Source of the DNA: Chthoniobacter flavus
Lineage (GTDB): Bacteria > Verrucomicrobiota > Verrucomicrobiia > Chthoniobacterales > Terrimicrobiaceae
Direction: 5' to 3'
DNA length: 45,026 nt
Assembly (NCBI GenBank): GCA_945883435.1
Contig: CAMCXK010000021.1
Coordinates: 1-45,026 of the forward strand
In this document: piece by piece, positions 35,089 through 38,237 of the stretch
How positions within the stretch are numbered: position 1 is the first letter of the stretch
How the letters are laid out: each line of letters opens with the position of its first letter
Translations under genes and position numbers: made by a program
Notes under the pieces: generated by a model
Told to the model about the DNA's origin: nothing
Seen by the model: the letters and a program-made list of their open reading frames with translations, nothing else
Database searches by the model: none

Positions 35089-35523
35089 TCAGTCGCGGTG
35101 GTAGGGGCGGCCGGCCAGAAGGGTTTCCGCCCGGTAAACCTGCTCCAGGGCGACAAGCAAGGCGAGTTCATGTTGCAGGGTTTGAGGACCCAGCGACCAG
35201 AGGAGGCCGGCCTGTTGCCGCACGGCATCGCTCCATCCGTCGGAACCGCCCACCAAAAGCGCAAGGCGGGAGGTTCCGCGCACTCGCAAGCGCTGGATTT
35301 CCCCGGCAAAGGCGCGGCTGGAAAATGATGTTCCGGTTTCATCCAGAATGATGCGGTAACATCCCCCGGAAAGTTCGAGCAGCTTGTCGGAGGCATCGGC
35401 GCGGGGTTTCACAAAATGGATTTCGACCTTGGCAAAGGCGGCGAGCCGATGGCTGTAATCCTCGATCCCGAGCCGCGCGAATTCAAGGGACGGCTTGCCG
35501 ACGGCGAGGATGCGCCAAGTCAA
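35089..35523 (-). CDS. rlmH: 23S rRNA (pseudouridine1915-N3)-methyltransferase
   Basis: RlmH is a SPOUT-fold methyltransferase that modifies pseudouridine 1915 in helix 69 of 23S rRNA on assembled ribosomes. The 144-residue product has the right length. Motifs include YRIILDETGTSFSSRAFA, the SAM-binding LALLVGGSDGWSD and the C-terminal EQVYRAETLLAGRPYHRD, corresponding to the family's conserved EQ-YRA-I-G-PYH end. Its ATG overlaps the lipA stop (ATGA), so the two are translationally coupled. Confidence 0.95.
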   Translation of the reverse strand: MTWRILAVGKPSLEFARLGIEDYSHRLAAFAKVEIHFVKPRADASDKLLELSGGCYRIILDETGTSFSSRAFAGEIQRLRVRGTSRLALLVGGSDGWSDAVRQQAGLLWSLGPQTLQHELALLVALEQVYRAETLLAGRPYHRD

Positions 35524-36407
35524 CGCTGGACCGGGTTGAAATCCGCGGCGTGGTAGGAACTGCGGACCAGTGGACCGCTGGCGACGAATTCGAATCCCTT
35601 GTTGCGGGCGATCACACCATAGTGGTCGAACATATCGGGCGTGATGTAAGCCACCACGGGAAGATGGTTCGGCGTCGGGCGAAGGTATTGCCCCAGCGTG
35701 AGCACACGCACGCCGGACTCGCGAAGATCGTCCATCGCCTGAAAAATCTCGGACTCCGACTCGCCGAGACCCAACATCAATCCGCTCTTGGTCATGAGAC
35801 CGGGCTGGAGTTCGGCGGCGCGCGCCAGAAAATCAAGGGAAAGCCGGTATTTCGCCCGTGAACGGACCAGGGGCGTCAATCGCTCGACCGTTTCGAGGTT
35901 GTGGTTGAACACATCCGGTCCGGCGGCCAAAACCCTCTGCAGCGGCTCGTCGCGCCCGTTGAAATCGGGCACCAGCACCTCAACGACGATTTTCGGGTCG
36001 AGTTGGCGGATCGCCTCGATGGTTTGGCCAAAGTGGTCGGCTCCGCCGTCGGCTAGGTCGTCGCGGGCGACCGCCGTGATGACGACATGCTTGAGTCCAA
36101 GACGCCCCACCGCCTCGGCCACTCGCTGCGGTTCGTCGGGCTCGAGGGGAAATGGCTTGGCCGTGTCGACGGCACAGAATCCGCAAGCCCTCGTGCAACG
36201 GTCGCCGGCGATCATGAAGGTGGCCGTGCCGCCGCTCCAGCACTCCCAGCGATTCGGACACTGCGCGCTTTCGCAAACGGTGTGCAGTCGCAAGTCGGAA
36301 ATCAGGCCTTTGGTCGAAAAAAAGACCGGGTTGGAAGGCAGGCGAACCTTGATCCAATCCGGTTTTTTCGACTGGTGCAGCGTGGGGTCGATTTTAATGG
36401 CAGCCAT
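35520..36407 (-). CDS. lipA: Lipoyl synthase
   Basis: LipA is a radical-SAM enzyme that inserts two sulfurs into octanoyl groups on lipoate-dependent enzymes. The auxiliary cluster motif CESAQCPNRWEC and the radical-SAM motif CTRACGFC are intact, and the C-terminal RSSYHA supplies the family's serine ligand to the auxiliary cluster. Other matches are VVITAVARDDLADGGADHF and GLMLGLGESESEI. I start at ATG 36407 (MAAIKIDPTLHQ) for 295 residues; the open frame runs 187 codons further upstream into low-complexity shadow sequence. No lipB is seen next to it. Confidence 0.97.
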   Translation of the reverse strand: MAAIKIDPTLHQSKKPDWIKVRLPSNPVFFSTKGLISDLRLHTVCESAQCPNRWECWSGGTATFMIAGDRCTRACGFCAVDTAKPFPLEPDEPQRVAEAVGRLGLKHVVITAVARDDLADGGADHFGQTIEAIRQLDPKIVVEVLVPDFNGRDEPLQRVLAAGPDVFNHNLETVERLTPLVRSRAKYRLSLDFLARAAELQPGLMTKSGLMLGLGESESEIFQAMDDLRESGVRVLTLGQYLRPTPNHLPVVAYITPDMFDHYGVIARNKGFEFVASGPLVRSSYHAADFNPVQR

Positions 36408-36489: not shown

Positions 36490-37758
36490 TCAATCTCCGT
36501 CGTCCGGATTGCGATCCGCTGGCGCGAACAACGCGTTGCGCAGGAAACCGGGAATGTCCGAATTGTCACATGTCCCGCGCACCCGCTCGGCACCGCGTCC
36601 CGCAGCACGCACGAGAATTCCTCCGGACGTGTCGCTGAGGGTTCCCCATGTGATGACAAACGGATGGGATACTCCGGAGCGGTCGGGACGGGAGAGGAAA
36701 GGTTTGCCATTTTCATCCAGCCCGTAAGGCGCACCGTTCGGATCGACACTTCGGGAGGCTTTCTCGAGAAGGGAGGGCTTGGCGGGAAACCCCAGCACGT
36801 CCATCGCGCCGGCGGCACTGTCCGCCGCCGTGAGCAAAAGGGTGTCAGGGCGGGATTCCACAAAAGCCAGGGCAGTTCCAAACGCCTCGTCCGCACGGCG
36901 AAGGGCTTCCAAAACACCCGGTGCGTTGTTGTGGTTTCCAAAATTGTCCGCCCCCTCCTCTTCCGCAATGAGGAGAAACGGGCCCGGAGCGAGAAGGCGC
37001 AGCGCGGCGGCCATCATTTCAGAGATCGTGGGGGCATCGGGGCTGAATGCAGGCAGACCGGCCGCTTTTTGTTCGGCGGGTCCCATGTCATTGAAGGTGT
37101 CCTGGGCTGCAAACACACCAAGCAAACGCGGCGTGCCATCGGGAACCGCCGCCAACTCCTCGCGGTTGTAAACAACCCGGTAGCCCTTGGACAGGGCCTC
37201 GGCGACCAGATTGCGGCCGTCCTCGCGCAGTCCGTCCTTCACATGGCGGCCCGGCGTGCCCTTCGGAAGCATCCATTCCTCACCGCCGGAGAGGATCACG
37301 TCCACACCCGACTCGACAACCTGCACCGCAATCTCGGCGTAGTTGTCGCGGGCGGGGACTTTCGCCACAAAACAGGCGGTGCCGGGCTCGATGAGACTGC
37401 CGGAATTCACCAGGCCGGTCCGAACCCCCTTGGATTGGGCCTCGCGGAGAATGCTGGTTTTATCGGATTCCGGCACAATTCCAAAACTCTCGTAGGGAGC
37501 CTTCACCCCGTAGGCGTGGGTTGTGGCCCCGCCGTTCGAGGAGGCGGACAGCGAGTTCGTCATGTGGCCCCTGTAAACCGCGATGTGGGGCAACCGGTCC
37601 CAGTTCAAATCCCCGTCCGGCCCGACCAGGTAAAACCGCGCGGCTTGCCAATGGGAGAGTCCGGCACCGTCGGGATGGAAAAAAATCGCGTTGCCCGCGA
37701 TGGCATTGCTGGCGAGGACAAGAAGAAGGAGGACCGGACGCGCAATCATGCGGTCCAT
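36490..37758 (-). CDS. Alkaline phosphatase-like protein with altered metal ligands
   Basis: A 422-residue exported protein of the PhoA family. The start at 37758 is supported by an AAAGGA ribosome site eight bases upstream, and MDRMIARPVLLLLVLASNAI is a signal peptide. Aligned by eye to PhoA, the first metal aspartate is kept (FFHPDGAG), as are the nucleophile-site serine (SSNGGATTHAYGVK, where the usual DS is SS) and the acidic/His segment (EEEGADNFGNHNN). The usual ADH motif reads TAADSAAG and the usual HT-G motif reads SDTSGGILV, so two zinc-ligand histidines are replaced by Ser and Asp. It may be a divergent metallo-phosphatase or an inactive relative. Confidence 0.85.
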   Translation of the reverse strand: MDRMIARPVLLLLVLASNAIAGNAIFFHPDGAGLSHWQAARFYLVGPDGDLNWDRLPHIAVYRGHMTNSLSASSNGGATTHAYGVKAPYESFGIVPESDKTSILREAQSKGVRTGLVNSGSLIEPGTACFVAKVPARDNYAEIAVQVVESGVDVILSGGEEWMLPKGTPGRHVKDGLREDGRNLVAEALSKGYRVVYNREELAAVPDGTPRLLGVFAAQDTFNDMGPAEQKAAGLPAFSPDAPTISEMMAAALRLLAPGPFLLIAEEEGADNFGNHNNAPGVLEALRRADEAFGTALAFVESRPDTLLLTAADSAAGAMDVLGFPAKPSLLEKASRSVDPNGAPYGLDENGKPFLSRPDRSGVSHPFVITWGTLSDTSGGILVRAAGRGAERVRGTCDNSDIPGFLRNALFAPADRNPDDGD

Positions 37759-37856: not shown

Positions 37857-38237
37857 ATGCCAACTTTAGCGATTGTTTTTGGAGTGATTCTGGATGCGAT
37901 GGGATTCGGAGCCTATGTAGCCACGGAAGCCAAAACCGCACTCATCCCCTGCGCTTTCGGATCGATTTTGTTTTTGTGCGGGATTGTGGCGGGTGCTCGG
38001 CCTAATTTGCGGATGCATGTGATGCACGTGGCAGCCCTCACCGCGCTCATCGGCACATTGGGGGGCTTGGGAATGGGCCTTCCAAAAGCCGGGGCGTTGA
38101 TCGCAGGAACCCTGGAAAAGCCGTTGCCCGCGATCATGCAGATCGGAATGGGGGTGCTTTCACTGATCTTTTTGGTCTTGTGCGTGAAGTCCTTCGTGGA
38201 TGCACGCCTCGCGCGGAAGTCGGCCGAACCGCAGTAG
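37857..38237 (+). CDS. Small four-helix membrane protein
   Basis: A 126-residue protein with four hydrophobic segments: LAIVFGVILDAMGFGAYVA, ALIPCAFGSILFLCGIVAG, MHVAALTALIGTLGGLGMG and MQIGMGVLSLIFLVLCVKS. Short loops and a charged C-terminus (FVDARLARKSAEPQ) follow. The small-residue-rich helices resemble compact bacterial membrane proteins of the TMEM14/UPF0136 kind, though I cannot confirm this. It is transcribed divergently from the phosphatase with 98 bases between, and convergently with the ROK kinase gene. Function unknown. Confidence 0.8.
   Translation: MPTLAIVFGVILDAMGFGAYVATEAKTALIPCAFGSILFLCGIVAGARPNLRMHVMHVAALTALIGTLGGLGMGLPKAGALIAGTLEKPLPAIMQIGMGVLSLIFLVLCVKSFVDARLARKSAEPQ

What the first reader, a model, noticed from the sequence alone, without database searches (positions are those of the whole stretch)
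36490..37758. PhoA-like protein lacking two zinc-ligand histidines
The usual ADH-E motif is TAADSAAG and the C-terminal HT motif is SDTSGG, so two metal-ligand histidines appear replaced by Ser and Asp, and the DS nucleophile pair by SS. The fold and signal peptide remain. It may use another metal (for example Ca or Fe), have a different ester substrate, or be a non-catalytic binding protein.
Basis: partly seen in the sequence, partly recalled or inferred. Interest (0 to 1): 0.5.

Follow-up and report, generated by a model that had tools for sequence, protein, structure and literature searches.

The report
Phosphatase rebuilt without zinc-binding histidines
This bacterial gene encodes a secreted protein of the classic alkaline phosphatase family in which all three histidines that normally hold zinc are exchanged for oxygen-bearing residues, an exchange shared by a whole branch of the family in many bacteria, including cyanobacteria, and one that suggests they recycle organic phosphate without zinc.

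Summary
Window 36490-37758 (-) encodes a 422-residue, apparently exported protein of the PhoA family (PF00245, E 2e-38; AlphaFold pLDDT 95; best fold matches are PhoA structures). Against E. coli PhoA, all three zinc-ligand histidines are replaced: H331→N275, H370→S314, H412→D376. D153→E, T155→G and D101→S also change. The nucleophile S102 (S74), phosphate-binding R166 (R137) and ligands D51, E322, D327, D369 are kept. This is not decay: 175 rows fall into three ligand patterns, 102 with this whole set, 52 with the zinc set, 21 degenerate, none between (92/48/16 after collapsing rows at 95% identity). Named members come from about nine phyla. With active-site columns removed the altered set is one clade, sister to Bacillus/actinobacterial zinc-type enzymes. 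Some cyanobacterial members are fused to GDPD, PhoX-like or RTX domains, and some lie behind Pho-box-like repeats. Best reading: an active exported phosphomonoesterase with an oxygen-ligand (Ca/Mg/Mn-type) centre instead of zinc. Metal, activity and substrate are inferred, not shown; two newly conserved histidines (H28, H81) leave a mixed site possible. New variant of a known kind; ten searches of an open-access library gave no earlier description.

The parts
36490..37758 (-). PhoA-family protein, 422 aa, oxygen-ligand variant (stop codon 36490-36492)
   Evidence: Pfam PF00245 E 2e-38; AF2 pLDDT 95.1, pTM 0.93; Foldseek and VIA best matches are PhoA structures
37696..37758 (-). N-terminal hydrophobic segment read by eye as signal peptide (residues 1-21, MDRMIARPVLLLLVLASNAIA)
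   Evidence: sequence; AF2 helix 6-20, pLDDT about 70; no signal-peptide predictor was run
37675..37677 (-). H28, newly conserved histidine (E. coli I49 position), two residues before D30
   Evidence: 102 of 102 oxygen-type rows; I, V, N or L in 51 of 52 zinc-type rows
37669..37671 (-). D30 = PhoA D51 (metal 2 / metal 3 ligand)
   Evidence: 64 of 64 in A2
37537..37542 (-). S73-S74 = PhoA D101-S102; S74 is the nucleophile position
   Evidence: S74 64 of 64; S73 position S in 26 and T in 38 of 64
37516..37518 (-). H81, newly conserved histidine (E. coli W109 position)
   Evidence: 101 of 102 oxygen-type rows
37381..37389 (-). E124-P125-G126: E124 at PhoA D153, G126 at T155 (metal 3 site)
   Evidence: E124 and G126 64 of 64; E at this place also in 1 of 52 zinc-type rows
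37348..37350 (-). R137 = PhoA R166, phosphate-binding arginine
   Evidence: 64 of 64
36961..36963 (-). E266 = PhoA E322 (metal 3 ligand)
   Evidence: 64 of 64
36946..36948 (-). D271 = PhoA D327 (metal 1 ligand)
   Evidence: 64 of 64
36934..36936 (-). N275 = PhoA H331 (metal 1 ligand, His replaced by Asn)
   Evidence: 64 of 64
36817..36822 (-). D313-S314 = PhoA D369-H370 (metal 2 ligands, His replaced by Ser)
   Evidence: 64 of 64
36631..36633 (-). D376 = PhoA H412 (metal 1 ligand, His replaced by Asp)
   Evidence: 64 of 64

Best explanation
It is an active, exported Ser-nucleophile phosphomonoesterase on the PhoA fold whose metal centre was rebuilt from two zinc plus one magnesium to oxygen ligands, most likely holding Ca2+, Mg2+ or Mn2+. 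Predicted sites: metal 1, D271, N275, D376; metal 2, D30, S74, D313, S314; metal 3, D30, E124, E266. S74 attacks the phosphorus, R137 holds the phosphate, and metal-bound water releases phosphate. The role is to free phosphate from organic esters outside the cytoplasm without zinc. Shown here: the replacements, their conservation, the retained nucleophile and Arg, the predicted fold, a single origin in the tree, the domain fusions of some relatives. Inferred: activity, metal, substrate, export of the window protein.
For: Residue correspondence with E. coli PhoA, ungapped around each ligand against Priestia in the printed alignment. Unselected tabulation of 175 rows gave three ligand patterns and nothing between: 102 oxygen-type, 52 zinc-type, 21 degenerate; 92, 48 and 16 after collapsing at 95% identity. 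Tree of 81 thinned rows without twelve active-site columns: 44 oxygen-type rows on one side of one branch (SH-aLRT 100), sister to Priestia, Paenibacillus, Kineococcus and Streptomyces zinc-type enzymes (97). Fold: pLDDT 95.1; VIA Z 46.2, rmsd 2.1 over 342 residues to 7qp8. dN/dS 0.047-0.119 in nine pairs. Fusions in six long cyanobacterial proteins that I chose for their unusual length: GDPD in 2 (one genome), RTX repeats in 2, a PhoX match (25.8 bits, cut-off 24) in 1, CBM96 in 1. GDPD yields glycerol-3-phosphate, a phosphomonoester (established knowledge). Paired Pho-type repeats upstream of cyanobacterial single-domain genes: p<0.01 in 6 of 26, against 1 of 53 other loci. PDB titles list a TAB5 phosphatase His135Glu mutant 'with Mg bound in the M3 site'; that His135 matches PhoA D153, the E124 place, is recalled.
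Against: I found no activity or metal data for any member. No coordinates were available, so ligand distances were not measured. H28 and H81 are newly conserved and could add nitrogen ligands. The Pho-repeat test is post hoc: a three-box scan came first and was weak (mean best score 26.2 vs 24.9 for shuffles); four of the six sites are the same or nearly the same site in related genera; at p<0.05 the counts are 8 of 26 against 7 of 53; the window gene scores only 15.3. Fusions were seen only in cyanobacteria, not in the window's relatives. Neighbouring genes give no functional hint. For the wider claim: a passage of PMC12206446 says low phosphate raises the zinc quota of Trichodesmium, which fits zinc-using PhoA there (membership of its PhoA in this clade is untested).
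Confidence: 0.62

Rival explanations
1. Still a transition-metal enzyme: H28 and H81 (perhaps H65), conserved in this clade, move into or under the site and provide nitrogen ligands, giving a mixed (Fe/Ca-like or Zn) centre.
For: H28 102 of 102, H81 101 of 102, H65 101 of 102 oxygen-type rows, where zinc-type rows mostly hold I/V, W/L/I and mixed residues. H28 is two residues from D30; H81 is seven residues, about two turns, after S74 in the predicted helix 74-83.
Against: The positions homologous to known ligands all carry oxygen donors. H28 and H81 lie deeper along strand and helix than D30 and S74, so a second-shell or core role is as likely. H65 is less special: 4 of 52 zinc-type rows have His there.
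Confidence: 0.2
2. Non-catalytic phosphoester- or ion-binding protein on a PhoA fold.
For: All three zinc-ligand histidines are gone. Related genomes do carry a degenerate PF00245 group.
Against: S74, R137 and four acidic ligands are kept in 64 of 64 rows, whereas the 21 degenerate rows have A, G, S or T at the nucleophile, P or A at the Arg and K or R at D369. Fusion of relatives to GDPD and PhoX-like domains.
Confidence: 0.08
3. An active hydrolase of another ester (diester, phosphonate, sulfate or phosphoglycan), with the altered metal site tuned for it.
For: The K328 position is N in 64 of 64 and the ligand set differs wholesale. The AP superfamily is known for such shifts (established knowledge).
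Against: R137, the phosphate-binding Arg, is kept in 64 of 64. No CxPxR-type sulfatase motif at S74 (sequence SSNGGAT). Fusion to GDPD and Pho-type repeats in some cyanobacteria point to phosphate esters.
Confidence: 0.1

Closest known systems
E. coli-type alkaline phosphatase PhoA (PF00245); near solved folds Vibrio 3e2d/7qp8, Halomonas 3wbh, E. coli 1alk
   Same: Fold, Ser nucleophile, Arg, D51/E322/D327/D369 equivalents
   Different: H331, H370, H412 replaced by N, S, D; D153→E; T155→G; D101→S/T
Bacillota/Actinomycetota PhoA group (Priestia, Paenibacillus, Kineococcus, Streptomyces)
   Same: Sister clade (97); Priestia and Kineococcus share the EEEG motif before D327
   Different: All three zinc-ligand histidines present
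PhoX and Psip1 (Fe/Ca beta-propeller phosphatases; abstract, opening and section 6 of PMC11098088 read)
   Same: Expected use of calcium; phosphoester hydrolysis outside the cytoplasm
   Different: Different fold; the window protein passes the cut-off of PF00245 only
PhoAaty of dinoflagellates and cyanobacteria (passages of PMC4548154 and PMC6723241 read)
   Same: Dinoflagellate enzymes reported to be activated by Ca, Mg, Mn but not Zn
   Different: Its motifs are said to fit no characterised domain; the window protein is a clear PF00245 member. No direct sequence comparison was made.
Sulfatases of the AP superfamily (Ca2+ held by D, D, D, N; recalled)
   Same: Oxygen-only ligands at the place of the zinc 2 site
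   Different: No formylglycine motif here; PhoA fold and Ser nucleophile

Membership tests
Alkaline phosphatase PhoA (PF00245) | PF00245 score above Pfam cut-off | tested here: met
   132.9 bits, cut-off 24.4
Alkaline phosphatase PhoA (PF00245) | PhoA fold | tested here: met
   AF2 model; Foldseek E 4.2e-28 to 1ani; VIA Z 46.2, rmsd 2.1, 342 aligned
Alkaline phosphatase PhoA (PF00245) | Ser nucleophile and phosphate-binding Arg | tested here: met
   S74 and R137 in 64 of 64 rows
Classical zinc PhoA | Three zinc-ligand histidines H331, H370, H412 | tested here: not met
   N275, S314, D376 in 64 of 64 rows
Classical zinc PhoA | Zn/Mg-dependent phosphomonoesterase activity | not testable with these tools
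   needs an assay
NCBIfam alkaline phosphatase equivalog NF007810 | Score above cut-off 540 bits | tested here: not met
   49.5 bits
PhoX | PF05787 match | tested here: not met
   no PF05787 match of the window protein at E<=1
Sulfatase | CxPxR/SxPxR formylglycine motif at the nucleophile | tested here: not met
   S74-N-G-G-A-T
Degenerate PF00245 group of related genomes | Loss of D327, D369 and R166 | tested here: not met
   window keeps D271, D313, R137
PhoAaty | Four published PhoAaty motifs | not tested
   motif letters were not at hand; only passages of PMC4548154 read

The most novel reading that the evidence does not exclude
A separate class of PhoA enzymes with a zinc-free, oxygen-ligand trinuclear centre (Ca/Mg/Mn, possibly with an extra metal at H28/H81) arose once and spread to about nine phyla: a PhoA-fold counterpart to PhoX and PhoD. 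Many cyanobacterial proteins that would be labelled PhoA (here including Richelia and Calothrix) would then not need zinc.
Probability: 0.5. Interest if true: 0.75.

Novelty: new variant of a known kind. Interest (0 to 1): 0.62.

Why it matters
Marine phosphorus studies often contrast zinc-using PhoA with iron/calcium-using PhoX and argue from that to metal limitation of phosphate supply (for example the abstract of PMC5454538 in the listing). A 2025 Trichodesmium paper states that the metals of its PhoA and PhoX have not been confirmed (PMC12206446, passage). If a PhoA clade of diazotrophic cyanobacteria and other bacteria is zinc-free, the gene name no longer tells the metal need, but a few alignment columns would. 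It is also a clean natural case of a whole metal centre exchanged within one fold, with no intermediate in this sample.

Tried and rejected
Gene neighbourhood: clustering of ORFs around the 80 loci and part of the window gave no informative neighbour. The largest neighbour cluster (C1, 12 loci) is cyanobacterial only; a few clusters span phyla but hold 2 to 6 loci each (for example C6, C7, C20) and cluster C5 is ORFs antisense to the gene itself. Plasmid search: 160 records, all under 60% identity; the six that I opened carry zinc-type enzymes and served as outgroups. Viral fold library: six matches at E<=0.001, all distant. Three-box Pho scan: little above shuffles; the two-box scan was chosen after it, with weights of my own. 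In the two-box scan the double-domain genes gave p<0.05 in 2 of 12 (Fisher 2.0e-4).

Whether Anabaena All2843/Alr5291, Trichodesmium Tery_3467 or the Halothece 'PhoA' copies belong to this clade could not be tested: no sequences at hand. A passage of PMC6713934 reports that phosphatase activity of Halothece did not change when Mg and Zn were left out; its authors credit PhoD, so it decides nothing here. Papers: abstract, opening and section 6 of PMC11098088; passages by the find function of PMC1906773, PMC4390845, PMC7564538, PMC4548154, PMC6723241, PMC5768637, PMC6411698, PMC6713934, PMC12206446, PMC3610870; the others only as search listings. Ten searches for an earlier description showed none in their listings; most subscription papers are not held.

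Limits of the counts. The positions D101, D153, T155, R166, H331, H370 and H412 lie outside the patterns, and double-domain rows found by profile alone agree, 27 of 27. The classes '102' and '52' are defined by the letters at the ligand positions, so '102 of 102' at those positions is by construction; the result is that the unselected table had no partial pattern. Some of the 175 rows are the same protein cut differently; at 99% identity 166 remain (97/48/21), at 95% 156 (92/48/16). Dropped before the 175: AP domains covering 75% of the profile or less, and 33 exact duplicates of 208 rows. A2 is the window plus 63 of the 80 loci; L030, L037 and L071 were left out for a stop or truncation, the other 14 by eye for likeness and size. 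The tree is a quick-method tree of 81 rows with SH-aLRT only; two of the 21 degenerate rows are in it. Organism names are record titles, many of metagenome bins that may be misassigned.

Full report
What is there. The ORF at 36490-37758 on the minus strand encodes 422 residues with an N-terminal hydrophobic segment and an AAAGGA eight bases before the ATG (read). Its only Pfam match above cut-off is PF00245 alkaline phosphatase (E 2e-38); NCBIfam's PhoA equivalog scores far below its cut-off (49.5 of 540 bits). The best-scoring solved sequences are Halomonas, Vibrio and other alkaline phosphatases. An AlphaFold model from an alignment of 64 rows, the window included, has mean pLDDT 95.1 and pTM 0.93. 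The best structural matches are E. coli PhoA entries (Foldseek E 4.2e-28, TM 0.74) and Vibrio phosphatase (VIA Z 46.2, rmsd 2.1 over 342 residues).

The active site. I fetched E. coli K-12 phoA and aligned it with the 64 rows of A2, three plasmid-borne phosphatases and twelve PF00245 proteins of related genomes. Ligand roles of the E. coli residues are recalled; the letters at the fourteen numbered positions matched. Kept: D51 (D30), S102 (S74), R166 (R137), E322 (E266), D327 (D271), D369 (D313). Changed: D101 to S/T (S73), D153 to E (E124), T155 to G (G126), K328 to N (N272), H331 to N (N275), H370 to S (S314), H412 to D (D376). So the three histidines that hold zinc are gone, each replaced by an oxygen donor, while the nucleophile and the phosphate clamp are intact. 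In the window protein a histidine (H276) follows N275, but only 5 of 102 oxygen-type rows have His there, so it is not a conserved substitute.

Not decay. I tabulated the ligand letters of 208 sequences, 175 after removal of exact duplicates: family members, canonical enzymes from plasmids, from the window's phylum and from Cyanobacteriota, and the PF00245 proteins of the window's family. They fall into three patterns with nothing between: 102 oxygen-type, 52 zinc-type and 21 degenerate; collapsed at 95% identity these are 92, 48 and 16. The classes are defined by those letters, so the point is the absence of partial patterns, not the uniformity within a class. Independent of that definition, 64 of 64 rows of A2 and 27 of 27 rows of cyanobacterial double-domain loci carry the full set. 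Nine close pairs give dN/dS 0.047-0.119. One scan used two peptide patterns that favour D51, E322, D327, N272 and H28; the exchanged ligand positions lie outside them.

Origin and spread. A tree of 81 thinned rows built without twelve active-site columns puts the 44 oxygen-type rows on one side of one branch (SH-aLRT 100), sister to four Bacillota/Actinomycetota zinc-type enzymes (97), on a long stem (1.09) (quick method, so support is less firm than a bootstrap). Record titles place members in Verrucomicrobiota, Ignavibacteriota, Chlorobiota, Bacteroidota, Cyanobacteriota, Planctomycetota, Pseudomonadota, Nitrospirota and Gemmatimonadota; many are metagenome bins. Frequency: 14 of 26 genomes of the window's family (E<=1e-30, own genome included), 7 of 288 in the phylum sample (E<=1e-60, own included), 19 of 244 in the cyanobacterial phylum sample (E<=1e-100, the Calothrix centre included). 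In the window's genome PF00245 finds this gene and one degenerate gene, PhoX finds none and PhoD one partial match (41.6 bits, cut-off 27).

What it probably does. Several cyanobacterial members hold two such domains in one protein that starts, by eye, without a signal peptide. I scanned six long ones chosen for unusual length: two (one genome, both cut by contig ends) begin with a GDPD domain, two end in RTX calcium-binding repeats, one ends in a PhoX match (25.8 bits, cut-off 24, cut by the contig end) and one carries CBM96. A further one, of Calothrix NIES-4101, shows four GGxGxD motifs but no Pfam RTX match. GDPD releases glycerol-3-phosphate, which a phosphomonoesterase would then hydrolyse. 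Upstream of 26 cyanobacterial single-domain genes, paired Pho-type repeats beat shuffles at p<0.01 in six (Fisher 1.3e-7), against 1 of 53 other loci (Fisher 0.13); at p<0.05 the counts are 8 of 26 and 7 of 53. This is supportive only: four of the six sites are shared by descent, an earlier three-box test was weak, and the window gene has no such site. Twenty-six of 80 loci show a lipobox-like motif by a loose pattern.

Mechanism. I propose Ser-nucleophile phosphoester hydrolysis with hard metals. Zinc favours histidine nitrogen; a set made of Asp, Glu, Asn and Ser suits Ca, Mg or Mn (established coordination chemistry). E124 at the D153 place fits a direct magnesium-type ligand; the PDB lists a TAB5 phosphatase with an engineered His135Glu 'with Mg bound in the M3 site' (title), the positional match being recalled; E also occurs there in 1 of 52 zinc-type rows. 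RTX repeats place some members where calcium is plentiful. What weakens this: H28 (E. coli I49) and H81 (E. coli W109) became conserved in the same clade (102 and 101 of 102) and could add nitrogen ligands; I could not measure distances.

Known or new. PhoX, Psip1 and PhoAaty are other phosphatases reported to use calcium or related metals (PMC11098088, PMC4548154, PMC6723241; parts read), but Psip1 resembles PhoX, a beta-propeller, and PhoAaty motifs are said to fit no known domain. I saw no description of a PhoA clade with replaced zinc ligands in the listings of ten full-text searches of an open-access library that lacks most subscription journals. I rate it a new variant of a known kind.

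Noticed in passing
G000:C6:63115-64245 (-), loci L002 and L126: A second PF00245 protein in the same genome starts, by eye, with a membrane-anchor-like helix and has lost most metal ligands (D327→G, H331→A, D369→K, H370→R, H412→E; also E322→D, R166→P). 21 rows of this type come from genomes of the window's family, with K in 20 and R in 1 at the D369 place: a likely pseudo-phosphatase.
   Followed up: partly
L231:2218-5085 (+), L232:2720-5620 (+): GDPD domain fused to two oxygen-type PhoA domains in one cyanobacterial genome, two copies, both cut by contig ends.
   Followed up: partly
L233:806-4639 (+): Two oxygen-type PhoA domains followed by a PhoX match (25.8 bits, cut-off 24), cut by the contig end: two different phosphatase folds in one protein.
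   Followed up: partly
L235:2516-7903 (-), L236:2802-6422 (+), L234:2539-8553 (+): Very long cyanobacterial double-domain phosphatases with RTX repeats (L235, L236) or CBM96 (L234); the RTX ones may be secreted by a type I system.
   Followed up: partly
window 35520-36407 and 36490-37758 (-): A gene that reads by eye as lipoyl synthase starts 82 bases after the phosphatase stop on the same strand, possibly co-transcribed.
   Followed up: no
window 37857-38237 (+): Small divergent ORF, membrane-protein-like by eye, beside the phosphatase; an ORF of the same cluster lies beside it in L024 and L025 (cluster C19).
   Followed up: no
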